A stretch of DNA of 64,000 nucleotides from contig JALBUN010000005.1 in assembly GCA_025174535.1 (NCBI GenBank), positions 434,001 through 498,000 of the forward strand. The letters run 5' to 3'. The stretch's first letter is position 1. The number at the start of each line of letters is the position of its first letter. Below are positions 1-64,000 of the stretch, piece after piece. A program made the translations under genes and the position numbers. The notes beneath the pieces are model-generated. The model saw only the letters and a program-made list of their open reading frames with translations, was not told where the DNA came from and made no database searches. The DNA is from Cantharellus purpuraceus. Its lineage: Eukaryota > Basidiomycota > Agaricomycetes > Cantharellales > Hydnaceae.

Positions 1-281
1 CTGACACATCTGTTCATACACCTCAGACATATTGAGTTTAGATTGATATGTACAGCAGGCAACATTGTGTCTAATGTTGTCCTGATTGGGAAAGGGTGTT
101 ATGTCCTTCACCGTATTATCATTCTGTTCATACAAGTTGAATATGGTGTGGAGCTTCCCATTTTTCTTGGGAATGCATAGCATTGGTACAGCCTGCTGGG
201 CTGTAGCTGATACCCACCATTTAGCAATGGTGTATTGCAGAACTTTCTTTGAAAGTTCTGCTCAGTAGTGCTCTGGACACT
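1..281 (-). CDS. Reverse transcriptase N-terminal part of A1 (runs off window)
   Basis: Reading the minus strand from about 281 to 1 gives an open frame through the RT fingers: a segment ending VPMLCIPKKNGK, then LHTIFNLYEQND, then DITPFPNQDNIRHNVA and YQSKLNMSEVYEQM. These match the order in Ty3/gypsy RT of the K-x-G-x-(L/W)-R-x-x-x-D-(Y/F) block, the 'P(F/L)P' block and the 'SK-D---Y-Q' block. The expected Arg-Asp of the second block reads as Ile-Asn and the expected Asp of the third as Asn, so the enzyme may be decayed. The catalytic YxDD motif lies outside the window. No start is expected because RT is made as part of Pol. Confidence 0.7.
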
Positions 282-830
282 TAATCAAGTGATAATGTAT
301 TCACTTGTCAGGATCCACAAGATTAATCTTGTGGTTAACTTCCCTAAATGGGGGAAGTTCTAAGGGTATGCTGCTGAATAGGTCAGCATACTTTTCTTTC
401 CATTGATGCCTCAAGTGAGGGATCTGACCAGCCATGTAAGTGGTTGGTCCTTCACAAGATGAAGCTATTCATGTTGTGCTCTTATTTGGATCCTCCATTG
501 GGGGTCCTTTACTGAGTCTAGTCCTTCTTCTAGGAAGGACTGTATTGTGGGTAGCTTGTGTTTAGAGTTACCCCCTTGGCATCATTTATTCCAATACTCC
601 TTCTTCATATTGAGTTTATACCCCGTGACAGGGTATGAAGAGCATTGGTATTATGCTCTTCATTGGTGGGGACTTCTTCAGTTCCTATCATGATTCAGCC
701 TGGGCCATTAAAGCCCAGGCATATTCCTAGCTTTTGTAGGAATGGGGTACTGAGTATTACATCGTAATACTCAATGTTTATACATAGGTTTGGCTGATCT
801 GTCAATGCTGACAGCAGCTATATGCAGCTG
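282..830 (-). other. A1 spacer between gag and RT, protease not identified
   Basis: This part of A1 should hold the aspartic protease and the start of RT. I could not find an intact D-(S/T)-G motif in a long open frame. The sequence is full of short inverted repeats, for example 315-334, 520-541, 635-663, 698-720 and 751-773. Confidence 0.4.
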
Positions 831-3034
831 TTATGATTCCCTGCTTCTTGGAAATCTTGTTGCACTACAGAAACGCACTGCATAGGTGTGTCTCAGTGGA
901 ATTTGATCATTGGGTTGAATTTGTATCACATTAGAGCGATACATTGGCATAGCCTCCTTTTCAGGGGCATCATCTTGGTCGTTCCATTCGTATGGGGTAA
1001 CCTCTTCATCCCATTCATTAGTTACTTCTATAGCTTGTATTTTTTCATCTAGATGGTCCTTGGGATCACCCATTCCTTCTTCATGTTCTCCCTCTATTGG
1101 GGAGAATATGTCTACATTGTCCTCCACTATGTGTGAGGACACATCCTTTTGGACTGCACCCAACCTTATGTTGCCCTTTAGTTTGGGGCAGCTGGGTTGC
1201 ATGTGACCTGTCTGGCCACATTCATAGCACACAATGTTACTAGTAACATTGTTCGATTGATCACCACTTGTGTGTGCTGGTGGCTTTGATTGATAATTAC
1301 CCTTGAAAAGGTAATTGTTGGAATTGGACCCAGAGCTTCCATTATGAGGTTCTAACCTTGACACACTTGCTTGTTATGAGTGTGTGTTGGGAGCCATATA
1401 CACATGTCCTTGAGGTGTGGGTCAACTCCCCATCCTCCTCAACCTATAGACCAGTAGTCAATAGAACTACTGGTCTATGGGTTGAGGAGGATGTGTTAGT
1501 CACGTTCTCTGGGTGTTGCATACCATGGTGGTATTGCATCACTTCCTCTATCATTTGAGCAGTTTTGTACAACTGCTCAATACTGCTAAACTCAGCAGTA
1601 AAGCCCTTCTTGAGGACTTCTTGTCTCAGAGGTTCACGCATTGCAGTTACAAACCTCTTCCTGTACATGTATGTGTCCAGCGGCATTATCATGTGACCCA
1701 CATACTTATCTAGGTCATTCATTAATTTGTTAATGGTCCTTTGACCCTGTATTACAGAGTCAAATTTATTTGACACATGATGATGCATCAGGGTGTGTAG
1801 GAATCTACACTGCAATCCTTGGATTGCAGTTTCCAGGGTCCAGTCTTGGACTGCCCTATTGCAGTGTTCTATATTCCTGTAGAACCATTCCTGGGCCTCG
1901 CCTTTAAGGCGAGTGCCTAAGTATGATAGCTGAAACTTTGTACTTGATGGCCCTAGGAGGTTATTCATCTTCAGCCATCATAGCATACCTGCTACAAAGA
2001 TCTCAAACTGTTCAAGATCTGTGCCTCCTGCATATTGCTCAGGAGGCAATACCTTAATGCCCACCTTGGCAGTACAGACTTCTCTGGGTCTGTATCTCTA
2101 TTATCGACTATGGCTACTTGCACCATATGAGTAATGCCATCAATAGGATCAATTGTGTCCAATTGATCTGGTATGCCTTGACCTTCTAGGGTCAATGGCA
2201 TTGATTGTTCCCTGTTATGGGGAACATCTTCTTGAGGTACCCATTGGGTATCTCATTGCTCATGGCAGGTGTCTCCTGAAAGGCCTGCCGCTTGTATGTG
2301 CTGATGACTGTTCAGCATATGTTGCGACTGTTGATTTAAATCAGCAGCCACATTGAGCTCTTGCTGGGGCTGCTGCTCTCTAAACAGCTGGCTGAGCTCC
2401 TGCTCTGCATGTTTAGCCTTCCATTTGAGGGCTAATCTATGTTTATGAGAAGCCTCAACTTCTTGTTGTTTCCATAGCTCAATCTCTTGATTGAGCTCCT
2501 TTGCCATAGATTGAGGAGTTTCCTCTTCAATCTGGATCAGTAATCCTTGCCTCACTGGGATTACTGGGTCTCTAATTCCCTCCATTGGGGGAGTTTCATT
2601 TCCTCTGTCTAACTGATCATTTGGTTGGATCCTCTTACCCCAGGGAGATTCAGACTCTCTGGATTCAGATTCCTGTCGAGAATCTGGTTTTCGATGACAT
2701 GACTTGCATTGCTCAGAGTTCTCTTGGAGCGATTTAACATTGTTCCTAGCTCTGCAATTTGCTGCCCCATAGTAGTGGCGGCATGCCCTGCTTTGGCAGC
2801 CATCTTAGCTGCCTGAGCACTAGCTTCGCTAATGCTTTTCATCTCATGTTGATTACACATGAGTTGTTCACTCAATCTTGCAATTGTCCTGTGGGTTTCA
2901 TGCCACTCTGTGCTGTGTGATTCCCTAGTAGAAGTATTGCTACTTCTACTTGTGCTCATATATTCAGCATGTTCCTTACCTTTAGGAATGTTGGAGACAG
3001 TGGATGACTGTCTCCTCCTTTCTTCTCTAATCAA
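831..3034 (-). pseudogene. A1 gag polyprotein, split by stops and shifts
   Basis: Structural protein that packages the element RNA. Five adjacent minus-strand open segments (2609-3034, 2253-2585, 1992-2201, 1444-1968, 831-1364) read as one decayed gag. The N-terminal part is Ser/Arg rich and then coiled-coil-like (EASAQAAKMAAKAGHAATT). The 1444-1968 segment carries the central capsid-like fold typical of Retrotrans_gag (LGTRLKGEAQEWFYRNIEH, later a Met/Arg-rich helix). The 831-1364 segment has a zinc knuckle CYECGQTGHMQPSC (CX2CX4HX4C), which binds RNA. The same gag, also broken, occurs at 43336-43911 and 49952-50335. The breaks are at different kinds of sites, so I treat it as inactive, though assembly errors cannot be excluded. 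Confidence 0.7.
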
Positions 3035-3351
3035 AGAACCACTTGATGAAGGGTTCTTGTTTGACAGATGATCTATTGTGTGATCGTCTGTGCAGTCTCA
3101 TGATCGTGGCAACCCTCTTCTATTGTTTTTCTTACAAGAAGTCCCTGTGAATTCTCTAGGGTCTAGCTCCCCTTCCTGGGAGCTTCTGCTGCTGGCTATG
3201 TGCCACCATTCATCATTTATGATGTCCTGTGTGCTGCCAGCATGACTCACTCTACTGCAAGTCATCATTATGATGACTCCTTTCTTTCTTCTATCTTTGT
3301 AGGCTAACTAAGTTAGTCTACTAGTTGCTCACTTATATGAGCGACCGGGGG

Positions 3352-3728
3352 TGTTGGTATACGTCTGTACACTAGCAACAGCCAGTTTTCTAGTATTGAC
3401 TAGAAAACTTCAATAATGAGGAAGAATCAATTGATTCTTCCTTTGGAAGTTCAAAAAAGTGTTAATGGGTGTCTTAGTTCACACTGTTACACAGAACTCA
3501 ACCAAGTGTATTGGTTGGGCCATGTGTTGTACAGTGTGGTAGTTAACTAAGTTCTATCTACTATAAGTGGACCCACACATGTACTGGGTCCACAGGCTTA
3601 CATAATAACTATACATATGCACCCATAGGGTGCATATATCTACCAAGAGGACAGCATTCTTTAAGAGAACGCTGCATATATTAATTATACTTATATATTA
3701 TAGTAAGTAAGTACCTTGGGTACTTACA
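3352..3728 (-). repeat. LTR of family A (5' LTR of A1)
   Basis: 377 bp. The minus strand starts TGTAAGTACC and ends ATACCAACA. Homologous LTRs lie at 50404-50775 (A2), 53999-54811 (A3, interrupted) and, inverted, 52681-52950 (A4) and 10199-10273. It contains perfect palindromes at 3384-3409, 3419-3442 and 3707-3727, the last forming the terminus. Confidence 0.85.
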
Positions 3729-6700
3729 CATCCCCAATGTCACCAGCAACTATAGGTGTGAAATTGTCTTCCACCTCTGCTGACTCTGCTCCAATAGATA
3801 CTCCATCTACATCTCTGTCTATGTTGATGGTGGATGCTATGGTCTTCACCAGACTAAGCAAACTGGATGGATCACAAACATTCCAGGTTCACCTCTCTGA
3901 TCCAATTTTTCTTGCCACCTACTCTGCTTGATCAGCTCTGCCAGACCTATCTATGGTTCTGAAGGAGTATCACAAGTTTGCCAATGTGTTCAGCAAGTCT
4001 AAAGCTGACTCTTTAGTAGAACACTGACCATAGTATCTTAAGATTGAGTTGGATGACAACTCCACCCCTCTGCTTGGCCCTATCTACTCACTATTTCAAA
4101 AAGAGCTGCTGGCTCTCTGAACATTCATAAACAAGAACTTAGCCACAGGCTTCATCTGCCCTTCCCTATCCCCTCACAGGGCTCCAGTCCTATTCATCTG
4201 CAAAAAGGACAGATCACTCTGTTTATGTGTCAACTTCCATGGACTCAACAAGATCACCAAGAAAGACTGGTACCCAATACCCTGCACTGTGGACCTGCTT
4301 GAGAGCCCATGAAAAGCTAAGATCTATTCCAAAATAGATCTCTGACATGCCAATCATCTAGTCCATATCTGAGAAGGCGATGAGTGGAAAACAACTTTCC
4401 ACACTTGATATGAATCTTTCAAATGGTGTGTCATGCCCTTTGGACTAAGCAATGCTCTGGCTACCTTCCAGTGGTTCATGAATGATACCCTTGCCAATCT
4501 CCTCAATGTTACTGTTCTCATTTACTTAGACAACATCTTGGTATATTCAGACAATGAAGATGAACATTGGATGCACATCTGAGAGGTACTCTGATGTCTC
4601 TGCCAACATGGCCTCTTTTCCCATGCTAACAAGTGTGAATTCCACTCTGACTCCATTGAGTACCTAGGCTATATCCCCTCCCCTGCAGGACTGACAATGT
4701 CTGATGTCAAAATCAAAGCCATACAGGAATGGCCAGAACTACAGAAAGTCAAAGATGTACAGTCATTCCTAGGGTTCACCAACTTCTACTGACACTTCAT
4801 CCACAACTACTCTGATATTACCATTCCACTCACCTGACTTACTAGGAAGGGTATCCAATGGAATTTCACTGACAAATGTAGACAGAGCTTTGAGACCTTG
4901 AAAAAGGCCTTTACCCCCACTCTGATACTGACTCATTGGGTTCCAGACATTCCTACCCTATTAGAGACTGATGCCTCTGACTATGCACTCACCACAATCC
5001 TGTCCATCATCTGGAGAGATGATGGACAAGTCCATCTGATCGCTTTTCACTTGCGTACATTTACACCCCCCAAACTGAACTATGATGTCCATGACAAAGA
5101 GCTCCTTGCCATATATGAAGCTTTCTGGATATGGAGACACTACCTTGAAGGCCCCTCTGATCCAGTTGATGTCATAACAGACCACAAGAACTTGGAATAC
5201 TTCTCCATGATAAAACCACTCACCCAGAGACAAGTCTGGACAAGTCTGGTGGTCCAAATACCTGTCTCAGTTCAACCTTGTTATCTGCTTCCATCCTGGT
5301 CAACTCAGAGCAAAGCCCGACACATTAACTAGACACTGGGACATCTACCCTAAAGAAGGGAGTAGTGACTATACCACTGTAAATCCACACAACTTTTGCC
5401 CTGTGTTCACTAATGAGCAGCTGGCATTGTCCCTATGAGCATCTACCCTCATGACTCCCACCCTCCAAGCTGTCACCATCATGGACATTGACCAACTCCA
5501 CTCCAACATCTGCTCATCACTCCAATCTGATCCTGTTGCAGTTAAACACTTGGATGACCCTTTCAATCCAAAGTGGTCGCTTGACCCTGAAGGACACCTC
5601 TGACACAATGACTGGATATACATCCCCAATGCCAACAGTCTCCAACTCTGAGTTTTGCAGTACTATCATGATCAACTGATTTCTGGCCACTTCAAGCAAA
5701 ACTGCACACAAGGGTTAATCCAATGAGACTGTGTATGGCCAAAAATGTGAGAGTATATTCAACACTACTGTAACTCTTGTACCATGTGTATGTACTCAAA
5801 ATTGCAAAGGCACAAACCCTATGGAACACTTAAGCAGCTTCCAGTTCTGGAGCAACTGTGGAATGCCATCTCCATCAATTTCATAGAGAAGCTCCCCTCA
5901 TCACTTGGATATGACACTATACTTGTGATTGTTGACAGGTTCACTAAACAGTCACTATTTATTCCAATGCATGACACCATCACCCCCACCTTACTAGCTA
6001 AGTTGTTCGTTCTCCATGTGTTCTCTAAACACAGAGTCCCATCACATGTCACATCTGATCAGAGCTTGGAGTTTGTGTCTTCCTTCTTCTGCACATTAGG
6101 AAAGGCTCTTGACATGAAGCTTCATTTTACCTTTAGATACCATCCTGAGGGAGATGGACAAAAGGAAGGAATGAATCAGTCCCCGGAGCAATATCTCCAA
6201 GTCTATTGTAACTATCAACAAGACAACTGGGCTGATCTACTTCCTATCACCAAGTTTGCCTACAACAATGCTCCAAATGTGACTACTGGCATCTCTCCCT
6301 TCTTCACTAATGAAGGCTACCATCTGAACACCTCCCTCCACCCCAAGAAGGAACTCACCAGCACCAAAGCTCATCAATTCATAACCAACCTCAACCAACT
6401 ACACCAACATCTCTGAGAAGCCATCTCTGATGCCCAGAAATGATACCAAGTCTCTGCAGACCAATGCCATACCCCAGCACCGGACTTACAGATTGGAGAC
6501 AAAGTATTCATCAAGGCTGAACACTTCCAGACCACCTGTCCATTGAAGAAACTCTCTGAGAAACACTTAGGTCCTTATGAGGACATCACTCATGTAGGCA
6601 GTAGGTCCTTCACCCTCTGACTCTCTGACCACTTCAGAGCAGTTCACCTGGTCTTCCATATATCAATGCTTGAACCTGCTACTACAAATGAGATCCCCAG

Positions 6701-41755: not shown

Positions 41756-41966
41756 TACAGTGGCTCAAAAAGCTGTCCCAATGTTTTGGACATTGCAGCT
41801 ATATGCTTAATATAATTAGGGATAAATTATGTAATATTCTGAGAATATTCTCCTGAAAACTAAAACATTAACTACAAACTGAGATAAGTATTATGTAATT
41901 TGGGTAAAATTTGATGAAATGGTCAGTACTTTCAAATGGCAACTCATTGGGACAGTTTTTTGACCC

Positions 41967-42983
41967 TGTTATAACCATATTCATTAATGCCCAGATCCCT
42001 GTCTGATCTATGCAGATCCCCATGCAAATGAAATCTATACTCCATATGGGAACCATCATGTCCCACCTGTCCATCTGATCATCATCACTGTCCCTGCCCA
42101 TCCATCTCCAGTTCCAATTGATGCATCAGCACCACCATAGGAACCTGGACATTTGTCCCCATTAGACTTGGACATAATCATGTAAGGCCATAGGCCTTGG
42201 AGACCCATCACTGGAGTAATTATTATTAGATTTCAAATATGTATTTAAGTTGTACAATTGGGGACTTCATTCCCCAGTTTGAATCACATATAGGTCCTAA
42301 GTCTGTTTCAACTATTTACTCATACTCTGTCTCTGAAGTCTTGGACACTAGTATTAGTGAAGGCACAGCACAAAAGCTGAAGCCAGGTCTGTTCTGACCA
42401 CCACAACTCTGATTCCAACCTGTTACGCACTAGGTCTGATTGGGGGTTGGAGGTTGGGTTGGAGATTGGGTCAGAGTCAGAGTGGGAATTGGGGTGCATT
42501 GTGGGGGTCAGAACGGACTTGGCTTCAGCTTATGTGCTGTGCCCTCACTAATACTGGTGTCTGAGATTTCAGAGACAGAGTACGACTTAGATAATTAGGA
42601 TTGGACTTAGGAACTAGGTGTGATTCAATATTCGAACTGGGGAATGAAGTCCCCAGTCAGGCAACTTAAATACATATTTGAAATCTAATAATAATTACTC
42701 TGGTGATGGGTCTCCGAGGCCAATGGTCTTACATGAGTATGTCCAAGTCTGATGGGGACAGATGTCCAGGTTCCTATGGTGATGCTGATGCATCAATCGG
42801 AACTGGAGACGGATGGGCAAGATCAGACAGATAATTGGAGATGTGATGGTTTCCAAATGGAGTATAGATTTCATATGCATGGGGATCTGAGTGGATTGGA
42901 TGGGGATCTGGGCATTAATGATATAGTCATAACACAACCCCAACTCAGAATACTTGACCCCCCAATGGATCCAGAGCATAACA
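41967..42983 (-). repeat. Inverted family C solo LTR (C'), interrupted by solo LTR C1
   Basis: Starts TGTTATAACCATATTC, the reverse complement of the LTR C end, and finishes CAGAGCATAACA after a 514-bp insert. Flanks GACCC (41962-41966) and GTCCC (42984-42988) are probably a mutated 5-bp duplication. Confidence 0.8.
42421..42934 (+). repeat. Family C solo LTR (C1)
   Basis: TGTTACGCACTAGG ... ATAGTCATAACA, 514 bp, with perfect duplication CAACC at 42416-42420 and 42935-42939. Inserted in C'. Confidence 0.95.
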
Positions 42984-44597: not shown

Positions 44598-46505
44598 ATG
44601 TCAAACCCTTTGGCAAGCATGAGCGTGGCCGAGCTGGAGCAGTTGCTGGCCTGACGGAAGGAAGAGGAGCAGAAATGGAAAGAGGAGGAGGAAGCAGAAT
44701 GGAGACGGAAGGAGGAGGAGGAGGCAGAACGGAGATGGAAGGAGGAGGAGGAGGCGGAACGGAGACGGAAGGAGGAGGAGGAGGCGGAACGGAGACGGAA
44801 GGAGGAGGAGGAGGCGGAACGGAGACAGAAGGAGGAGGAGGAGGAGGCGGAACGGAGACGGAAGGAGGAGGAGGAGGCGGAACGGAGACGGAAGGAGGAG
44901 GAGGAGGAGGCGGAACAGAGACGGAAGGAGGAGGAGGTGGTGGAATGGAGACGGAAGGAGGAGGAGGAGGCGGAATGGAGATGGAAGGAGGAGGAGGAGG
45001 CGGAACGGAGATGGAAGGAGGAGGAAGAGGCGGAACGGAGACAGAAGGAGGAGGAAGAGCAGCGGCGGAAAGAGGCGGCGAAAACAGAATGGAGAAGGAA
45101 AGAGGAGGAAGCGAAAGTCGAGAGGGCCCGCATGGTGAAGGAACCTGCGGCAGCGATGGAGGCTGCAAGACTGAAAGAAGTGGAGGAGCAGGCGCACGAG
45201 TTAGAGGCCACCATGGAGGTAGAGGAGGAGGTGACCGGGGCAGGGGGAACCAGCCACCCAGGAAGTCCGAGTGTGCCAATACGGCCAGGGACTCCGGAAG
45301 TGGCCATCATCTCCGTTACATGGACGGAGACGACTCGTTCGAGGACTGTCACTGTGGAGGGCTCGCCGTTACATCCACGGGCATGGCCCCTATTTGAGTT
45401 GGGGGCAGCTGAGGAAGATGATGTGGCAGAGACGGAGAGGGTGGAGGTGGAGGTGGATCCCAATGCCAATGTGGATCTCGGTGCGAATGCGGAGCCCGAG
45501 GTGGATGTTGGGATGGATGCGGAGCCGGATCCCACTTCGAATTCCTACAAGGAGATGGCTTGGGTAGCTGCGGTCGAGGCTTGCAAAAGAGCAGAGCTCT
45601 ATGCCACTACCACCAAGAAGAATCTCGATGTCGTGGTCTTTTCATTGAAGGCCTACCCGAGTGCTGATATGGAGAAGCGAGAGGCAGACCGGAGGGTCAT
45701 ATGGGGCAAGGCGGAGAGTTGCGTGTTGGCGACCCATAAGAAGGAGCTGTGTGTCACGAGGTCGGCGATCCAGCTTCGCAAGCGTGAGATGGAGAAGGCG
45801 GCAGCAGAACAGCAGGACAAGGAGGAGGAGAGGGAACGCTTGGAGGCCGCAGTGAGAAGGGGCGGACCACCCAAGTCTCTGGCTCCAACGGAGCCATTTG
45901 GCAGACCCGGCGTAACTTGCAACTTATGTCGTGATGCGGGTGTGGAGTGCGTGTGGCCTACTGGCCCAACTCGCCGACTTCGGTCCTGCAATCGTTGTCA
46001 GGGTCGGAAAGGAGGGTGTAGGATCAATGGGAAGTTCGATCCCCGGAGTCGGAGCGTCAAGCCCCGACTAGTGGTACAAGGAGGGGCAGAGAAGGAATCG
46101 GAGGGTCGTCCGACCAAAAAGAGGCGGACGGAGACGGGTGCTGTGGCAGCCGGGGGTAGCGGTGTCGGATCAGAAGGGGCGATGACCGGCGCAGGTATGG
46201 GGCACGTTTCAGCGCCCAATAGCACTGTGGGCCAGCTTATCCAGCTGGTTAACCTGCAGTTGGAGCACCTTCGGCGGATGGAGGGGTTGTTAGTAGACTT
46301 GGTGAGGACGATGAAATGGAAGGAGGTTCTGGAGGGTCATTGGACAGCTGAGTTACGTCGGTTGCGGAAGTTCATGGCCCCATTGGACAAGGATTTGGAC
46401 ATGGGAGATGAGAAGGATTGGGTGTCGGATGTAGAGAGTGATGATGAGTTGGAGATGGAGCTTGAGGTAGATAAGGGAAAGGGAAAAAGGAAACGCGATG
46501 TATAA
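44598..46505 (+). CDS. Antisense accessory ORF of element C: coiled coil plus Zn2Cys6 cluster
   Basis: Opposite strand to pol, between pol and the 3' LTR. The frame runs 44598-46505 (635 codons) with a single TGA at 44652-44654, where CGA (Arg) fits the repeat. Residues 25-150 are a Glu/Lys/Arg coiled coil of about twelve 10-residue repeats (AERRRKEEEE). An acidic middle follows. At 45918-46019 lies CNLCRDAGVEC, 12 residues, CNRCQGRKGGC: the CX2CX6CX12CX2CX6C signature of fungal GAL4-type zinc clusters. Then come basic segments (RPTKKRRTE), a helix HLRRMEGLLVDLVRTMKWKEV and a nuclear-signal-like end KGKGKRKRDV. Likely a nuclear DNA-binding protein; role in the element unknown. Homologues at 22925 and 51833. 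Confidence 0.75.
44690..45060 (+). repeat. 30-bp purine-rich coding repeat, about 12 units
   Basis: Unit CGGAACGGAGACGGAAGG plus GGA-rich remainder, coding AERRRKEEEE. Nearly all purines on plus. Open in several frames on both strands only because of the repeat. Confidence 0.95.
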
Positions 46506-49946: not shown

Positions 49947-49951
49947 AGTGG

Positions 49952-50403
49952 GTTTCATGCTGCTCTGTGCTGCACAATGCCCTGGTAGGTATTGCTACTT
50001 CTACTTGTGCTTGTTTCTTGAGCACATTTCTTCCCTTTAGGAACATTAGAGGCAGTTACTGACTGTCTCCTTCTTTCTTTTCTTATCAAAGAACCACTCA
50101 ATGAGGGGTTCTTGTTTGACAGATGATCTATTGTATGATCATCTGTGTGGTCTTGTGACTGTGATGACTCTCTCCTAGAGTCTTCCTTATGAGAAGTCCC
50201 TACAACTTCTCTAGGATCTAGCTCCCCTTCATGGGAGCTTCTACTGCTGGCTATGTGCTGCTGTTCATCATTTATGATGTCCTGGGCACTGCCAGCATGA
50301 CTCACTCTACTTTGAGTCATCATTATGATGACTCCTTCTCTTCTACTTCTGTAGACTAACTAGGTTAGTCTACTAGTTGCTCACTTGTGTGAGCAACTGG
50401 GGG
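49952..50403 (-). pseudogene. Family A gag, copy A2, right part, and leader
   Basis: Matches A1 2905-3351. The segment ending at 50323 codes the Ser/Arg-rich gag start. 50355-50400 is the leader with two hairpins. Confidence 0.8.
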
Positions 50404-50775
50404 AATTGGTATATGTCTGTACACCAGCAACAGCTGGTTTTCTAGCACTGGCTAAAAAACTTCAATAAGGAGGAAGAATCAACTGGATTCTTCCTCTGGA
50501 AGTTCAAAAATGTGTAAGGTTGTGACTTAGTTCACACTGACACAGAACTCAACCAGATTTTATTGGTTGTGCTATGAGCAATGTGAGTTACTTCTAACTA
50601 CATGTGGACCCACACATATACTAGGGTCCACTGATTATATAATAACTGTATATATGCACCCCATGGGCATACATAGCTACCAAGAAAGCAGCATTCCTTA
50701 AGGTAATACTATAGACACTAATACACTCATATATTTATATTATTCCACCATGAGTAAGTACCTAGAGTACTTACA
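50404..50775 (-). repeat. Family A LTR (A2)
   Basis: Collinear with 3352-3728; its distal TG is mutated to AA. Right end TTACTTACA-like (TAGAGTACTTACA) abuts element L. Confidence 0.85.
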
Positions 50776-51650
50776 CTCAGAGTTCATGTCCTCTTTTTTT
50801 CTGAACATTAGGAAAGGTCTTCAACATGAAGCTTCCCTTCACCTTCAGTTATCATCCCAAAGGAGACAGACAAATAGAACACATGAATCAGTCCCTGGAA
50901 CAATATCTCTGTGTCTATTGTAACTATCAACAAGACAACTGGGCTGATCTACTTCCAATCACAGAGTTTGCCTACAGCAATGCTCCAAATGCAACTACTG
51001 GCATCTCACTCTTCTTTGCTAACAAAGGCTACTACCCAAACATCTCCATTCACCCTAAGAAGGAACTCACCTCTACCAAAGCCTGCCAATTCATGACCAA
51101 CCTCAACCAACTACACCAACATCTCTGAAACCATCTCCAATGCCCAGAAATGATACTGAGTCTTTGCAGACTGACACTGTGCCTCAGCTCCAGAAATGCA
51201 GATCAGAAACAAGGTATTTGTCAAGGCTGAACATTTCTGGAGCATCCATCTATCCAAGAAACTCTCCAAGAAATTCTCAGGTCCTTATGAGGTCATCACC
51301 TGTGCCAGTAGTAGGTCTTTCACCCTCCAACTTCTTGACCACTTCCAAGCAGTTCATCTGGTTTTTCACATATCAATGCTTGAATCTGCTATCATGAACA
51401 AGATTCCCAGTCACACCCAATCTTCACCTCCAATCATCATTGAAGGAGACAACAAATATGAGATATCCAAGATTCTCAACTTGAAGATTGATTGTCAATA
51501 CCAGTACCTAGTCAAATGGACTAGATATGAAGGCACCAATGAAGAGTCTTCATAGATCTCCACATCCAAACCTTATCATGCATCCAAATCTGTCTCTGAT
51601 TTTGATTCTGCTTATCCAAATAAACCAGGTCTGCTCACAAATCTTTAAGT
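50776..51650 (+). pseudogene. Element L integrase C-terminus and chromodomain (C/K family)
   Basis: 50826-51128 is the integrase C-terminal part (MNQSLEQYLCVYCNYQQDNW, LPITEFAYSNAPNATTGISL). After a shift, 51196-51555 gives NKVFVKAEHFWSIHLSKKLS and the chromodomain start (YQYLVKWTRYEGTNEESS), ending with a stop in place of Trp. The rest of L was displaced when A2 inserted at 50775. CpG-poor and inactive. Confidence 0.9.
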
Positions 51651-52950: not shown

Positions 52951-53998
52951 TACAGTAGTCTTTGTTAGCAAAGAAGGGCAAGATACCAGTAGTTGCATTT
53001 GGAGCATTGTTGTAGACAAACTCTGTAATTGAAGGTAGATCAGCCTAGTGGTCTTGTTGATAGTTACAATAGACTCAGAGATATTGTTCCAGGGATGGAT
53101 TCATGTGTTCCATTTGTCTGTCTCCTTGTTAAGTGCTGGTACACAGGGTTCAAAGGAGTAACTGGAGTTTAGATGCTAGTGATAAGAGGAGGGGACTTTA
53201 CTGTTCTAGTTCAACTGGAGACAGAGGGGAGCAATAACTATTGAGTTGGATCGAGTGGACTTGGCTTCAACTTGTGTGTTGCACTCCCTTGGATTGTCAG
53301 TCGAATATTTCAGATTTCAGAGGTATGGAGTTGGATCAAGGATCTGGAGTTCAACTTGTCAAGAAGTGTCCTGTCAAGAAACTAGCAACCAGAATGAAAC
53401 TTAGTCAATATATGAACTGCTGTAACATACAGAGTAGCCTGTATAAGTGTGTAAAGAATTGAATGATAAAACTAAAAATGATAGGACAATAAGATGGATA
53501 TGGAATACAACATAGAGAGGAGTTTGGAGTCCAGACTCAAGTCCAAACTAATACTAATCAATATAAAAGTAATGGTTATTGTAACCCATATTAAGGAAAC
53601 TACTTATTAAGAGAACAATAAATGGAGTTCAGGGTTGCTGGAGGTGGAGTAGATAGGGGTGGAGTAGATGGAGTTGGAGATGGAGTCTGGAGATCAGACT
53701 TGGTGTTACAGAATATAACACTCCTTTGGGATGATAACTGGAGGTGAAGTGAAGCTTCATGTTGAGGGCCTTTTCTAATGTTCAGAAGAAGGAGGACATG
53801 AACTTCAAGCCCCAGATGTCAGAGTGGAGTTGGTCAATGTCCATGATGGTGATAGCTCAGAGTGTAGGAGTCATGAGGGTGGATGCTCATAGAGATGATG
53901 CCAGCTGCTCATTAGTGAACACAGGGCAAACATTATGTAGGTTTACAGTGGCATAGTTGCTACTTCCCTCTTTAGGGCAGATGTCCCAGTGTAAGTTG
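52951..53998 (-). pseudogene. Gypsy integrase relic M (C/K family), split by LTR B4
   Basis: 52953-53126 and 53721-53998 read on minus as integrase parts matching element C (47280-47480 and 48080-48250), with an internal deletion at about 53812. Heavily CpG-depleted. Confidence 0.75.
53127..53720. repeat. Family B solo LTR (B4)
   Basis: TGTTAAGTGCTGG ... AATATAACA, 594 bp, with perfect target duplication CTCCT at 53122-53126 and 53721-53725. Confidence 0.95.
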
Positions 53999-54811
53999 GT
54001 GTCTTAGTTCACACTGTTACACAGAACTCAACCAAGTTTATTGATTGTATAGTATGGTAGTTTACTACGTTCTGCCTACTATATGTGGACCCACATGTGT
54101 ACTTGGGTCCACTGGCTTACATAATAACTATACATATGCACCCATAGGGTGCATATATCTATTAAGAAGACAGCATTCATTAATGGATTAATTATAACTA
54201 TATAATTATATACTATAGTAAGTAAGCACCTTGGATGCTTGTTCAGAAATACATCAAATATGTATATACAACCCATTTCCTCAAATTTTATATAATATAC
54301 TTATATTAAAACATATTTTGATATTTCATACATGATTCTCAAAAATAATTCTTTTTTTTCATTCACCAGTGGCAACTGCTTCAAGGGAACATTCTACTCC
54401 TGCTACACTTGATTTCTTTCACTCATTCTTTCTTGTACTATACTGGTCAAATAATCTAATGTACCTTCAATCCTCACCTGGCATTTGTCTAAATATTCTC
54501 TATTATACCAATAATATTAATATATATATCACTGTTATATTCATATAAATAATTATGTTCATCCATAACAAACATCTTATCTTTTAAAGTTTATTAAAAT
54601 ATGAAATATATATTTATATTTATAAAAATTTAAGATATCCAAAAAAAACTCAGATATCCAAAATCTTTAAAGATATCCAGATTGTAACTCCCTATTTTTA
54701 TGATCATTATTAAAATTCTGATGTATTTCTCATATATTCTGATGTACATCTTGTATACATCAGAATATTGTATAACAGCATCATTCTGAACAAGTGTCTT
54801 GGGTACTTACA
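53999..54811 (-). repeat. Family A LTR (3' LTR of A3), interrupted by solo terminal repeat
   Basis: Left-truncated LTR from about 53999 to 54233, resuming 54799-54811 (GGGTACTTACA). The insertion sits in the terminal palindrome of the LTR. Confidence 0.85.
54234..54798 (+). mobile_element. Solo 565-bp copy of the transposon terminal repeat
   Basis: Starts GATGCTTGTTC, ends GAACAAGTGTC, flanked by TTG at 54231-54233 and 54799-54801. Same length as TDR-L and TDR-R but diverged at many sites. Either an independent MITE or the product of recombination between two terminal repeats. Confidence 0.9.
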
Positions 54812-54825
54812 CCCTCCCTTTTTTG
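54812..54825 (-). promoter_or_regulatory. Polypurine tract of A3
   Basis: The minus strand reads CAAAAAAGGGAGGG directly before the LTR start TGTAAG, the expected primer for plus-strand DNA synthesis. This fixes the orientation of A3. Confidence 0.7.
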
Positions 54826-55057
54826 AATGAGGCACAATCTCATTGAGTACCTTTTTAATCATACAGCTCCTTATGAAGCTGCTCTGATGAGTTGGTGTCC
54901 ATATGATCATCTTGATCATATGGCTCTGGAGGGGGATGGCTCTCAGTTGTCCCTGATGTGGTTGTGGTATCCTCATCCACTTGAATGGATGAGGAGGATG
55001 CAATTGCTACTGCAGCATCCCAATTGAGTTCATGATTGAGTTGATTGTGACCTAAAT

Positions 55058-55868
55058 TGTTGAAAAAATTTCGCCTTGCTGGGGGTGTGTGGAGAGTAGA
55101 TTTTGAATAGTGACAGAGGGAGTGATGGGAACTGGGTGTATGCATAGTCTAATTGAAGATATACTTGAGTAGTATCTTCCTATGAAGTTTGATGAAATTT
55201 GGTGTGATCTTTGTCTAGATATTGACAATTTGAGCAGGGATCAGGAGCAGATGACTCGAATGAGAGTAAATGCTTAATAGAAAATCAACCAGTGGAGCTT
55301 AGGCTTCAAAAACTAGGATTCGAATATATGTTGCAATACCCTGGAAGAGTATGCAAAATATTGTATAAATACACGTTTGTTCTGGAGTTATTCCAGAAAT
55401 GGATAGTTCAGACACAGTCAACAAAAACAAGTGAGAGCAAATTCTCTAGTCCATTGCATATCTAGCTAGGCATGTTTTATACAAGATATGCATGCTAATA
55501 ACTCGTGATAAAAGTTCTGTGTCATGTGGATAAAGGGAAAGTGATTTATGATAAAAACAAAATGGGGGGTGATGTCAAATAGGGAAAAATGACAAAATAA
55601 ATCAAAAGAAAAATTAGGGTGAATGTTCAGATTATTGTGGAGCTTACAGGGGCTCCTCCTTTCCCCTCTCAGTCATTTCCCCTCATCTCCTTATCCCATC
55701 CTGAGCTCCTGAGCCTTCTATATGCTCCTATCCCTCCTATCCCCTCTGTTCCTCCCTCTCCTTTTTCTCCCCAGAAGTCTGGTTTTCCAAATAACATAAA
55801 TGCTCAGCAAGAGAGTATTTAGTAGCTTTATGAGCTGCTTGGGAGACTCCCTGAGTCTCCTGCTTTCA
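55058..55868 (+). repeat. Family H LTR (H1), probably solo
   Basis: Starts TGTTGAAAAAATTTCGCC; homologous to the start of the copia LTRs at 58370 and 61319. The right end is placed at CTGCTTTCA, but no target duplication is visible, so that border is uncertain. Confidence 0.65.
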
Positions 55869-56563
55869 CTTACCAACCCTGGTGGGCTGGTTAAATGCTG
55901 CTCCAGAGGCAATGCACTTAGCAAACTCCTCTAAAATAGTAGCACGATCAGGGGTGATGCCTCCCAATTGCCCAAACCAGAGTGCAAGCTCTAGTTCAGT
56001 ATGTTCTTTGGGGGAGTGATTCCCCCAATCATATGCTCCAGTGACTGAAGCACAAAAGGTGTCACCAAGAGTTAGTGAGAACTTTTGGTCACTGGTTAAT
56101 AATTCCCAGTGGCTGGGATTCTGGAACATAGTCCAGAGGTTCTTCTTGAATGCAGAAGAACCCTTTTTAGAAGTGGCCTTTTGCAGCCACATCCATATGT
56201 CCACATCAGACAAGTTCATGGTGCCATCCAACTCCTGTTGGATGGCCAGGGGGACCCCATTAGGGTTTGCTTGCCACCCCTGTATGAAGGCAAGTGTGTC
56301 TACCAGCATGGTCAGTAGAGTGACGATAAGACTCACATTATCAGTGTGAGCCAGCAGAGTTATTCTCTTGATTACTCTGCGCATTGGTATGGTCTGTTCT
56401 GTGAATAGCATGGCCAATGCCTTTTTATGGAGCGATACAAACTCTGGAGTGTCCATATTGCAGATGTCTCCATATTGCAGATGTCAAACCAGTCTGCCCT
56501 GATAGGGGCAGACCCCAGAGGTCACAGCAGGTGGCCAGTGACTGCTTGGGGGGGAGGGGGGGG

Positions 56564-57995
56564 TGTATGGGAACCACCTTTTCCCTATCAAATTCCATTT
56601 ATGCAGCACCAATGTGCTATTCTTTGCTTTTCCATTCCTAAATATCAGCATATATTTGATGCTTGTACCTGGAATGGACTTATTCAAATATTCTCTATTT
56701 TTCCATATTTTTTCGGGAATATTCCATGCAGAACTCAGCTCAGAATCATTTATTTCTGCTGTGCTACAGTTGTGGACCCATAGGCGCCCACAAACCTTCG
56801 CGCAGCCACCTCTCCCCTTTTGGACCAGGCATTTGGCCTGAATTCAAGCTCAGATGTCTCTGATCAATAAATATTCTCTAACTTAACAACCACAGCCTCT
56901 CAGGGCACTATTTTCCGTGGAGATCATCACATGACATGTGGCTATCCATGGCTGTCCAAACCAGTGCAGAAAACAGGGTGGACACCCTTCTTTTTGCCTG
57001 ATCAGTGCCTAGTTCAGGGATCAGATCAGCTGATGGGTGATCAAATCAGGTGATTGCCTTGGAATATTCTACCCCTTTCCATAACATTCTAGCTGTTTCC
57101 CTCTATTATTAGATAGAACTTTCCAGAACCATTATTCAGCTCCTGATCAGTGTTAGTGCTGTGATCAGATCCTGTGATTGGCTTGGAATATTCTACCCCT
57201 TTCTTCCACCTTCCACAACCTTCCAGTAGTTTCCATCTATTAATAGGTAGAATATTCCAGAAGCATTAGTCAGCCCCTGTAAATACAATATATAAGGAGG
57301 CCATTCTGCCTCTGAAAGAATAACATATCATCATATTCTACCCATCTTCTGCACACCAGTGTGACTAGAGTGACATACAGTGTCATCCTCTATCTCATTA
57401 ACTGTTGATTACCAGTTCAAGGATCTTTTACAGTTGTGTAACTGTACTTGATTGCACTCGAAGTAGTGATATTCCTGCTTTGGGTGTGAGTGTAGTATCT
57501 GCCTCACGTGACTACGAATCTACAGGGTGAGATTGTCTGTCAATAGTCCTGCCATTAGTGCTCTTGTTTAAGTAACTAGTGTGTACTGCCTTTGCAGAGC
57601 ATTAGAAGCTTGAACTCGTGTGAAGCAGTTGCTAGACTACTTCACACATTGCTGTTACCCGCTTCTGAGTGCCACTGGTTGGACGGTTGGATTCATCCAC
57701 CTACTTCCTTTAGCCTCTAAGTGCATTCCCCTCTTTTTGGAATATCTGGACCCCTAAGCGTCCGTGAACTCTAGACTCTGGAAGTCTTATTCATTTCTTG
57801 CTGCTAAGAAACGTATTACCTTTCTGTGTATAGTCTGCATTGACCAATACAAAGGATTGTAACCAAAGTACAAACGTTAAATCGTTTCTGGAGTTGTGCT
57901 GCAGCAGGGTTTGATATTCTTCTCAGCTGTTCATTCACGGAATTGTGGTGATTTAGAGTTTGCCCTAACACCATAATTTTGCGGGTTCCAAAACA
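56564..57995 (-). mobile_element. Solo LTR of family G, inverted (G3)
   Basis: TGTATGGGAACCACC ... GGTTCCAAAACA, 1432 bp, flanked by GGGGG on both sides. Splits ORF3 of A3. No coding content. Confidence 0.9.
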
Positions 57996-58369
57996 GGGGG
58001 GGGTCAGCTGCAGTCATGAACCATGGTGCCCATTTGGGGAATGATTTCCCCACATTGGCATGCTTGAGAGCATGCCTAAAATTGTCCCAGCATTTGTGAT
58101 AATTTGCATGCTGGGCTTCTTCCAGTGTCTTCAACACTGGGTCTTCTAATGTATGGCTGGCATCACCAGCCATATATTCCTTTTAAAGCTGATCAATCTC
58201 AGCTTTGATTTTGGATAAGGCAAACTCAAAGAGTTTTCCTGGTTGCTTAGCACCCTTGGGAATGCTAGCCAGGAGGAGACCATGATCATGGTCATATCCC
58301 TCCCAGATTGGGTCAGTGTTGTCCCAATCTTGACCCTTAAACCCTCAAGGGTTGACCTGAGGCAATTTG

Positions 58370-62582: not shown

Positions 62583-62921
62583 CTAGCAGAGTTTGACCAT
62601 CAAAGTGGTTTGATATATGTCCTCAATGTGTCCTGGCTCATCAGCACTGCTGTGCCATCTGCCAATTTTCCAGGTCATCTCATCTTGATGACCTCTGATC
62701 ATATCTGCAGCACTGATTGCCAGTGCTGCCACTGTGGGAGTTTGTTCAACTTCCATTGGATGCTCATCTTGAGCATCCATCATCTCCCTTCTGAGAGATG
62801 ACATTTTGATGGAGGGGGGGTTGTGGTGGTTTGAAGAAGCACTGCTAGCCTTTTATGGCTGAGCTTGAAAATTCTTTATTGAGAATTTTTCCAGTGACTA
62901 TGTCACATGGGTGTAACATGA

Positions 62922-63915
62922 TTATTTATCACTTACATGCTCATAATGCACATACAGTTGAATGAGACTGATGTGGAACATAGGCATAATGCACCTACTA
63001 GTCAGTTCTGGTGGGAGTTCTAGTGTCACCGTCAAAGCTTTATTATGGGCTTTGATTACTTTATAGGGCCTGATATACTTGGGCACTAGTTTGCTGGTTC
63101 TACCCTTAGGTAGAGTCAAGTTTTTTGTTGAGAGGTAGACTTTGTCACCTTTCTGGAAGGTTGAACCTTCCTGACATTTCTTATTGGCATGAAATGTCTG
63201 AACAATGTGACTTTCTATAATTGCATTGTGTGCTGCTAGCAAGTTCGCTTGAGCCTGCTGTGCCAATCATTTGACACCCTTGAACTTGGTGTCATTGTTC
63301 ATGGGCATGCCTATTCTAGGCATATACCCATAGCTAAGCCCAAATGGAGTAAACCCTGTTGTTGAGCTTATATTGGAGTTTAGTGTAACTCCACCATTGG
63401 ACACTTATGTGCCCAATATTTCTGATCACTTTGTACAACTGTATGAAATATTTGGTGAATGGAACAATTTGCTCATTCCATTGCTCCATCTGTTTGCAGA
63501 TGGAATGCTGTGGACATGAGGAGTTTCACCCCCATTATCTGCTGTAGTTCACACCAAAAGATAGATGTGAATTTGAATCTCAATCAGACATGATCAAGTC
63601 TGGTATACTGTGAAGGTGTACAACTTCTTTAAGGAATAGCCATGCTACTCCTTTTGCTGTTACATGTGTATCCATAGGTATTATATGTACCTGCAATGTG
63701 AAGCAATCTATGACTACCAGTTGGTAGTCATAGTCATTAGATTTTGGTAATGGACCCATAAAGTCTATACCTATCAATTGCCAGGGCCATTCTGGTACTG
63801 GCAAGCTATGAAGAAGCCCTATGAGTTTCTTTGTACTGTCTTTATTCATTTGGCACTTCATGCATGAAGTGCAGAATGATTTGACATTGGTGATCATGCC
63901 TGGCCACCAGTACAA
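62922..63915 (-). pseudogene. Family A (A3) integrase
   Basis: Minus-strand integrase, continuing beyond the window. 63580-63915 holds the zinc-finger end (SCMKCQMNK) and core (WPWQLIGIDFMGPLPKSNDY, then QLVVIDCFTLQVHIIPMDTH) with the first catalytic Asp; the second Asp block is frameshifted near 63580. 62922-63266 is the C-terminal domain (GDKVYLSTKNLTLPKGRTSK, IRPYKVIKAHNKALTVTLEL), of the GPF/Y type without a chromodomain. It is followed by a gap of about 115 bp and then ORF3. This integrase differs clearly from those of C, D and L. Confidence 0.85.
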
Positions 63916-64000
63916 CCGTCAAATGTAATTCACAGTCTTTAGTTGACCAAAATGGCCAACTACTTGGTATGCATGGTTGATTATTATCTTGATCAGCCTC

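What the first reader, a model, noticed from the sequence alone, without database searches (positions are those of the whole stretch)
1..3728. Family A retrotransposon is saturated with short palindromes
Throughout A1, in coding and non-coding parts alike, inverted repeats with arms of 8-11 bp and loops of 0-10 occur every 50-100 bp. Examples: 237-261 (arm GCAGAACTTTC, loop 3), 315-334 (perfect 20-mer), 520-541, 635-663 (arm 11), 698-720, 751-773 (arm 10), 1232-1251 (perfect 20-mer), 1555-1580 (arm 10), 1809-1830 (arm 10), 2022-2048, 2476-2497, 3260-3278, 3384-3409, 3419-3442 (perfect 24-mer), 3707-3727. By chance an arm of 9 with loop up to 10 is expected about once in 24 kb. The same density is seen in A3: 54899-54923, 54970-54995, 56223-56246, 58057-58076, 62707-62729, 62757-62779, 63155-63171. 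Families B, C and D show nothing similar. In A1 versus A2 some arms are kept while the loop changed (GTAATCC...GGATTAC at about 2545 and 43560; GAAGAATC...GATTCTTC in the LTR; TGGACCCA...TGGGTCCA in three LTRs). This suggests selected RNA or DNA hairpins, or a mutational process creating micro-inversions in this lineage.
Basis: partly seen in the sequence, partly recalled or inferred. Interest (0 to 1): 0.88.

Follow-up and report, generated by a model that had tools for sequence, protein, structure and literature searches.

The report
Retrotransposon packed with perfect hairpins
One family of jumping genes in this genome is filled along its length with short perfect mirror-image DNA palindromes, about one every 50 to 70 letters; they look as if one half was copied from the other, and they are an unusual natural record of that copying error.

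Summary
Window 1-3728 holds 24 perfect inverted repeats (arm >=8, loop <=10) against 0.64 expected (maximum 4 in 500 shuffles). They belong to one old Ty3/Tf2-like LTR family. They cover LTR, gag, pol and 3' region, are few in nested elements, and are near background at 13 loci of other retroelements (0.28 per kb against 6.3-7.6).

Stems are strictly Watson-Crick and end sharply; pairing beyond them is random (0.23-0.28). Neither G.U nor A.C bridges stems, so selection for RNA folding is poorly supported. Apparent covariation is CpG decay, independent in the two arms (363 matched pairs, 352 expected).

In several copies the loop is the exact reverse complement of the usual one. In A1 (1434-1490) one event inverted the loop and lengthened the arm from 9 to about 25 bp. 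This is the footprint of polymerase template switching.

Arms vary less than spacers only among shared variants, and the 10 hairpins of subfamily A2 sit at sites known in A, so something holds them.

Best reading: palindromes written by fold-back copying during the element's replication, then retained. Origin is inferred; why they are retained is open. My literature searches found no such retrotransposon.

The parts
3298..3728 (-). 5' LTR of copy A1 (431 bp, TG...CA)
   Evidence: LTR ends; 40 candidates scored, other full matches 89-94% identical
1..3297 (-). internal part of A1 (5' leader, gag, start of pol); continues left of the window
1447..1977 (-). gag frame fragment, weak Ty3_capsid match (20.4 bits, cut-off 29.1)
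834..1373 (-). gag frame fragment with CCHC zinc knuckle PF00098 (25 bits, cut-off 20.8)
1434..1490 (-). fold-back event private to A1: loop 1459-1465 is the reverse complement of the loop in 25 of the 28 sister copies that cover it, and the arm grew from 9 to about 25 bp (one mismatch), 9 bases being replaced by 16
237..261 (.). perfect hairpin, arm 11, loop 3
315..334 (.). perfect palindrome, arm 10, loop 0
635..663 (.). perfect hairpin, arm 11, loop 7
751..773 (.). perfect hairpin, arm 10, loop 3
1231..1252 (.). perfect palindrome, arm 11, loop 0
1555..1580 (.). perfect hairpin, arm 10, loop 6
1809..1830 (.). perfect hairpin, arm 10, loop 2 (sense-strand loop AA in the other copies shown, TT in L019)
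2476..2497 (.). perfect hairpin, arm 9, loop 4; loop inverted in L034, and in L024/L035 with altered arms
3384..3409 (.). LTR hairpin, arm 11, loop 4
3419..3442 (.). LTR palindrome, arm 12, loop 0
3567..3593 (.). LTR hairpin, arm 9, loop 9; arms kept, loop varies among copies (partly CpG decay)
3615..3637 (.). LTR hairpin, arm 10, loop 3, in the inverted-loop state (TAT on the sense strand)
3707..3727 (.). hairpin at the 5' edge of the LTR, arm 9, loop 3; loop inverted in L018 and L026
43336..43916 (-). A2, gag pieces of a divergent subfamily (about 78% to A1), with hairpins
49948..50776 (-). A2, LTR and 5' gag piece
53988..54240 (-). further partial A LTR
54792..58369 (-). A3: patches of the A 3' region carrying hairpins (54792-55057, 55794-56554, 57997-58369), interrupted by other repeats
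62642..64000 (-). A3: RT-integrase part; integrase match at 63583-63915, 80% identical to the L044 integrase piece
63708..63733 (.). 12-bp-arm palindrome lying on the integrase coding stretch

Best explanation
Family A is an old Ty3/Tf2-like LTR retrotransposon whose sequence was palindromised. During its replication cycle the polymerase, most plausibly the element's own reverse transcriptase (inferred), repeatedly folded back or jumped to the complementary strand at short chance inverted repeats. It copied about 8-11 nt of one arm onto the other and sometimes flipped the loop. This produced short, strictly Watson-Crick, sharp-ended hairpins across LTR, coding and non-coding parts alike, bounded by the transposed unit. 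The arms are now held in the replicating lineage by purifying selection or by rare correction, and decay freely after insertion. Shown: element-bounded saturation, perfect sharp-ended stems, loop inversions, one fold-back extension, no clear arm correction after integration. Inferred: that the same process made the other hairpins, that RT is the polymerase, and why they are retained.
For: Element-bound and lineage-specific: L047 has 51 hairpins in 6.7 kb of element and 2 in the 2.7 kb outside; the 1 kb foreign insert in L045 has none and the short repeat nested in many A copies has 0 to about 2 per kb; other loci 0.28 per kb. Fairly uniform density: 14-19 sites per kb in LTR, gag and PR-RT, pooled over copies. 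Copy-like stems: the first unpaired position is G.T in 114 of 855 (13.3%; 13.8% expected), the next positions pair at random (0.23-0.28), and the longest arm is 8-11 bp at 64 of 67 sites, a few counted twice because alignments overlap. Strand-switch footprints: of loop states differing at 3 or more bases, 16 of 75 are exact inversions (overlapping loop definitions; 11 distinct copy-by-site cases) against 4 of 2035 in spacers, three of those CpG-type (Fisher 5e-21 on these non-independent rows). Inverted states are scattered on the tree. A1's event. Stems are not one repeated unit: 10 shared 7-mers among 54 sites against 5.1 (max 18) in shuffles; two neighbouring pairs of hairpins share an arm. 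Yeast precedent for arm homogenisation plus spacer inversion (PMC8604942, passages).
Against: No block-copied new hairpin was caught except A1's extension. Of five hairpins seen in one or few copies that I looked at, two (prrt 1067 in L061, LTR 394 in L005) are completed by one base change in that copy, one (g1 398) is CpG decay in the others, one (prrt 1166, L072/L074) varies at non-CpG bases and may be a subfamily gain or loss, and one (g5 338) could not be judged. All 10 A2 hairpins are at sites also found in core copies, though two of them in only one core copy: no turnover seen since the split. Non-CpG double changes are rare: 3 events among core copies against 452 non-pairing cells, fewer than continuing arm-to-arm conversion would leave. 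Shared variants are depleted in arms (37 in 999 columns against 133 in 2081 spacer columns, p 0.002) while singletons are not (208 against 478); the contrast itself p 0.029, which points to selection. No closely related element without hairpins was available. It is not shown whether the loop inversions happened in the RT cycle or after insertion.
Confidence: 0.45

Rival explanations
1. Genome-scale ordered RNA structure: the hairpins are selected in the genomic RNA (packaging, stability, escape from RNA silencing).
For: Predicted folding is far stronger than mononucleotide-shuffled sequence (L047 -34.9 vs -22.8 kcal/mol per 120 nt). Arms are more conserved than spacers and loops between one A2 LTR and A (13 of 192 vs 43 of 196 and 5 of 23; p 2e-5 arm vs spacer) and among shared variants. 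In that A2 LTR stem changes are 8 G.T to 2 A.C.
Against: No G.U preference: one-mismatch stems G.T 16, A.C 25, other 14; shared unpaired states G.T 12, A.C 21, other 1; no pairing beyond a G.U (0.266). The antisense strand folds as well or better (also so in control loci). Over the five A2-type rows G.T 14 vs A.C 10. Non-CpG covariation is nearly absent.
Confidence: 0.18
2. Selection for hairpins in single-stranded cDNA or in duplex DNA (cruciform-like), which would demand strict Watson-Crick arms on both strands alike.
For: Strand symmetry and strict Watson-Crick arms; constraint on arms only among shared variants; A.C and G.T tolerated alike. Two hairpins completed by single base changes fit stepwise gain.
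Against: Selection normally leaves graded, imperfect stems; pairing past the first mismatch is random. I know of no need for such structures every 50-70 bp through coding sequence (recalled knowledge).
Confidence: 0.18
3. A host chromosomal replication or repair process that keeps making micro-inversions and perfecting palindromes at these loci.
For: Loop inversions are known at inverted repeats in yeast (PMC8604942, passages) and, from listings only, in chloroplast DNA. Some inversions here are in single copies. Pooled CpG-decay states lean towards matching (odds ratio 1.33, p 0.075).
Against: Site by site the two arms decay independently: 363 matched CpG-decay pairs against 352.0 expected. 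Foreign elements nested in A copies and other families lack the feature or nearly so. Singleton rates do not differ between arms and spacers.
Confidence: 0.08
4. Chance, composition, low complexity, or insertion of one mobile palindromic unit many times.
For: None found.
Against: 24 vs 0.64 in shuffles; codon shuffles exceeded in 4 of 6 A frames; arms of different sites do not form one sequence family; the sites recur across the roughly 30 aligned copies of each region.
Confidence: 0.01

Closest known systems
Coding palindromes of nematomorph mitochondrial genes (Mikhailov et al. 2019, PMC6649704; abstract and discussion read)
   Same: Many perfect inverted repeats inside coding sequence, no excess of imperfect ones, both arms coding; those authors also consider template switching or conversion.
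   Different: Mitochondrial, repeats up to 284 bp, gains and losses between species. Here a nuclear LTR retrotransposon, arms 8-11 bp, coding and non-coding alike, no turnover seen between two subfamilies.
Template-switch mutations at short inverted repeats in yeast (Abraham and Hazkani-Covo 2021, PMC8604942; passages)
   Same: Arm homogenisation and exact spacer inversion; the REG2 case (5 to 16 bp arm plus inverted spacer) resembles A1's event.
   Different: There scattered events in genes; here a whole element carries about one hairpin per 50-70 bp.
Template switching creating RNA hairpins (Monttinen and Loytynoja 2022, PMC8794818; passages)
   Same: Perfect stems created in one event, stem extension, loop inversion.
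   Different: There RNA genes; here a protein-coding mobile element without G.U stems.
Genome-scale ordered RNA structure of RNA viruses (recalled; only a listing)
   Same: Structure spread over a whole genome and strong predicted folding energy.
   Different: Here no G.U use, no strand preference, strict short perfect arms.
Ty3 of yeast, SHAPE map (PMC11381356; passages)
   Same: Same superfamily; a short palindrome near the 5' end serves RNA dimerisation.
   Different: There six 6-nt palindromes were examined in the 5' RNA; no saturation is mentioned in the passages seen.

Membership tests
Ty3/gypsy (Metaviridae-like) LTR retrotransposon | Gag with CCHC zinc knuckle | tested here: met
   window 834-1373 minus, PF00098 25 bits over cut-off 20.8
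Ty3/gypsy (Metaviridae-like) LTR retrotransposon | Ty3-type capsid | tested here: inconclusive
   PF19259 20.4 and 25.6 bits, cut-off 29.1
Ty3/gypsy (Metaviridae-like) LTR retrotransposon | Integrase with H2C2 zinc domain and Tf2-1-like SH3 tail | tested here: met
   PF17921 30.7 bits (cut-off 25.5) in L044, PF24626 56.1 bits (cut-off 30) in L045; the core PF00665 is below its cut-off (18.5 vs 32.6)
Ty3/gypsy (Metaviridae-like) LTR retrotransposon | Reverse transcriptase before integrase | tested here: inconclusive
   the piece L044:4986-5348 gave no Pfam match; frames are broken and were not joined
Ty3/gypsy (Metaviridae-like) LTR retrotransposon | LTRs starting TG and ending CA | tested here: met
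   LTR 3298-3728; a second, partial LTR copy 7.5 kb on in L045
Genome-scale ordered RNA structure | Folding energy well below shuffled controls | tested here: met
   (mononucleotide shuffles, three per sequence)
Genome-scale ordered RNA structure | G.U-tolerant, strand-specific stems | tested here: not met
Genome-scale ordered RNA structure | Compensatory covariation | tested here: not met
   CpG decay: 363 observed vs 352 expected; 3 non-CpG double events among core copies
Template-switch-made palindromes | Exact loop inversion with arms kept | tested here: met
Template-switch-made palindromes | Arm extended by reverse-complement copying | tested here: met
   one event, A1 1434-1490
Template-switch-made palindromes | Perfect stems without an excess of imperfect ones | tested here: met
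Template-switch-made palindromes | Continuing gain and loss of hairpins | tested here: not met
   10 of 10 A2 hairpins at sites shared with at least one core copy
Template-switch-made palindromes | Arm-to-arm correction in integrated copies | tested here: not met
   (site-wise 363 vs 352.0; pooled odds ratio 1.33, p 0.075)
Template-switch-made palindromes | Reverse transcriptase is the switching polymerase | not testable with these tools
   needs per-cycle events or a close outgroup

The most novel reading that the evidence does not exclude
A retrotransposon lineage whose reverse transcription was so prone to fold-back copying that it rewrote its whole genome, coding and non-coding alike, into closely spaced short perfect hairpins while still encoding its proteins, and whose replication then came to depend on that hairpin-saturated state, so that arms are conserved while loops flip and drift.
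Probability: 0.25. Interest if true: 0.88.

Novelty: new variant of a known kind. Interest (0 to 1): 0.7.

Why it matters
If right, this is a natural, element-bounded record of template switching with dozens of sites per copy and many copies in one genome. It makes testable how perfect hairpins arise and persist, a question raised for RNA genes and for nematomorph mitochondria. It also shows how far coding sequence can bend to palindromes, and warns that CpG decay in palindromes mimics compensatory covariation.

Tried and rejected
Covariation as evidence of structure: first counts showed compensatory pairs, but they sit in CpG dinucleotides present in both arms and the two arms decay independently site by site. 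Rejected.

An early count mixed orientations, because loci come in contig orientation; it was discarded and redone.

Hairpins in one or few copies as new gains: I first wrote that they were all CpG decay; on rechecking only g1 398 is. prrt 1067 (L061) and LTR 394 (L005) are completed by one base change, prrt 1166 is open, g5 338 could not be judged. For this I lowered the best reading from 0.48 to 0.45 and raised three rivals by 0.01 each. Loop differences such as TGTG/CACA were set aside as CpG-type, and flips in a repeat nested within the A copies (loops ATGAAG/CTTCAT) as an orientation artefact.

Outside relatives: two collection scans with the L044 gag piece found none; the protein database was unavailable. 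No Rfam family reaches its cut-off in window 1-4200. Self-priming of the Tf1 kind: no exact complement longer than 7 nt between the 35 nt after the LTR and the LTR. Codon-phase bias of hairpins: 18, 15 and 7 in the three classes, suggestive only.

Upstream LTR flanks as a boundary control (42 hairpins in 14,263 bases, 24 flanks, 2.94 per kb) look against a sharp boundary. I did not use them, because some flanks contain other A sequence (for example the inverted A piece beside L025, L027, L028 and L029); the boundary claim rests.

Rows dropped: divergent A2-type rows and W:54240 were left out of core counts; CpG columns were left out of non-CpG counts; g3 was left out because it overlaps prrt; stem sites needed 3 or more intact copies (2). 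'comp' cells whose majority is a gap or a mismatch (most of the 205) were not counted as double changes. The alignments g5/g1/g2/prrt overlap somewhat, so some sites are counted twice.
Full report
WHAT IS THERE. The window is C5:434001-498000 of a 40.15 Mb genome in 50 contigs. Its first 3728 bases are the 5' end of an LTR retrotransposon on the minus strand: LTR 3298-3728, then gag, with pol running off the left edge. The zinc knuckle, the H2C2 integrase domain and a Tf2-1-like SH3 tail place it in the Ty3/gypsy group, though capsid and integrase core stay below their cut-offs and RT was not identified by profile in the piece tested. LTR and gag searches each scored only 40 candidates, so copy counts are lower bounds; a gag protein piece gave 153 matches. 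Integrase matches of the family go down to 72% amino-acid identity and the next are at 39-45%, with nothing between in the 150 candidates scored.

All listed hairpins exist. There are 24 in 1-3728 against 0.64 in shuffles, and four of six open A frames exceed all 300 synonymous-codon shuffles. The feature covers the element: 51 hairpins in 6.7 kb of L047 with 2 in the 2.7 kb outside; 51 in 7.75 kb of L045, although about 1 kb of that is a foreign insert with none. Thirteen loci of other retroelements (28.6 kb, picked from RT matches or 41-44% integrase matches) are near background. Pooled over copies, sites seen in at least three copies occur at 14-19 per kb in LTR, gag and PR-RT, and 34-43% of alignment columns lie within a hairpin.

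WHAT THE STEMS LOOK LIKE. The longest arm is 8-11 bp at 64 of 67 sites and loops are mostly 0-11 nt. Immediately outside a stem, pairing is random (0.23-0.28), and the first unpaired position shows no excess of G.T (114 of 855; 13.8% expected). A.C is somewhat above expectation (225, 26%; 18.6% expected), but neither is followed by more pairing (0.266 and 0.237). One-mismatch stems are G.T 16, A.C 25, other 14. Folded RNA selected for structure would be expected to use G.U and leave graded stems. Mikhailov et al. used the same absence of imperfect repeats to argue for conversion in nematomorph mitochondria (PMC6649704, abstract and discussion read). Two neighbouring pairs of hairpins share an arm, as if one stretch had been copied to both sides; otherwise sites share no more 7-mers than shuffles (10; mean 5.1, max 18).

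THE COPIES ARE OLD AND DECAY FREELY. At 32 stem CpG pairs only 11 of 858 cells keep CG on both sides. Site by site the two arms decay independently: matched states 363, expected 352.0; the pooled table leans slightly towards matching (odds ratio 1.33, p 0.075). So the compensatory look of these stems is largely an artefact of CpG in palindromes, and no clear arm-to-arm correction acts in integrated copies.

STRAND-SWITCH FOOTPRINTS. At several hairpins the loop in some copies is the exact reverse complement of the loop in others: LTR CAA to TTG (L018, L026); LTR ATA to TAT (A1, L043, L032, L018 and the partial LTR W:54240); gag AAGA to TCTT (L034, and L024/L035 with altered arms); gag CGCAAG to CTTGCG (L022) and CACAAG to CTTGTG (L026); gag CAATAGA to TCTATTG (A1). 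Of loop states differing at three or more bases, 16 of 75 are exact inversions (11 distinct copy-by-site cases), against 4 of 2035 in spacers, three of which are CpG-type. On a star-like tree of 31 copies the inverted states are scattered. In A1 one event inverted the loop, which is CAATAGA in 25 of the 28 sister copies that cover the site, and replaced nine bases by sixteen that are the reverse complement of the left arm's outer flank with one mismatch, turning a 9-bp arm into about 25 bp. The same pair of effects is described for yeast REG2 (PMC8604942, passages), and template switching as a maker of stems in PMC8794818 (passages).

EVIDENCE FOR CONSTRAINT. Among variants shared by at least three copies, arms carry 37 in 999 columns, spacers 133 in 2081, loops 25 in 311 (arm against spacer p 0.002). 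Singletons do not differ (208 and 478) (shared against singleton contrast p 0.029). Shared variants can also arise by repeated hits at hot spots, which weakens this contrast. Between A and one A2 LTR, arms differ at 13 of 192 sites and spacers at 43 of 196; two further partial A2-type LTRs give 5 of 70 against 20 of 125 and 8 of 81 against 30 of 151; the two A2 gag pieces show smaller differences (5 of 134 against 15 of 220; 11 of 115 against 28 of 227). All ten A2 hairpins sit at sites where 1 to 26 core copies also show one (two of the ten in a single core copy). So the hairpins predate the subfamilies and have been kept, not continually renewed.

READING. Copying explains strict pairing, sharp ends, even spread, element boundaries and the visible footprints. 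It does not by itself explain low turnover and conserved arms, and two hairpins found in single copies were completed by one base change, not by a block. I therefore favour, at 0.45, an origin by fold-back template switching in the replication cycle, probably by reverse transcriptase (inferred), with later retention by selection of unknown target. RNA-structure selection and DNA-hairpin selection remain live at about 0.18 each; continuing chromosomal micro-inversion as the source of the arms is contradicted by the site-wise CpG test.

KNOWN OR NEW. Ingredients are known: template-switch mutations, loop inversions, nematomorph coding palindromes. A palindrome-saturated LTR retrotransposon did not turn up in my searches of the open-access library (listings seen). 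That is not proof of absence from print.

Noticed in passing
L045:6000-7000: A different repeat of about 1 kb, with at least 40 places at about 91-93% identity, is inserted inside an A copy and carries no hairpins, a built-in control.
   Followed up: partly
window 41965-42934; L044:3157-3683: A short repeat nested in many A copies; the window stretch 41967-42934 aligns to its own reverse complement at 78%.
   Followed up: no
window 44653-45109: Tandem-like self-matches of roughly 60 bp period lie within a 616-aa open frame (44655-46505) without a Pfam match.
   Followed up: no
window 4320-4341; L048, L049, L054, L055, L056: A palindrome AGATCTATT(4 nt)AATAGATCT is shared by 5 of the 13 control loci of other retroelements and the window.
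   Followed up: no
G000 C2:387700-389900 and C12:937799-939999; C35, C37 (two places) and C1:3862305: Nearly identical A copies on different contigs suggest large duplications or haplotype contigs in the assembly.
   Followed up: no
whole family A: CpG sites in stems are almost completely decayed (11 of 858 cells keep CG on both sides), pointing to old, probably methylated and silent copies.
   Followed up: yes
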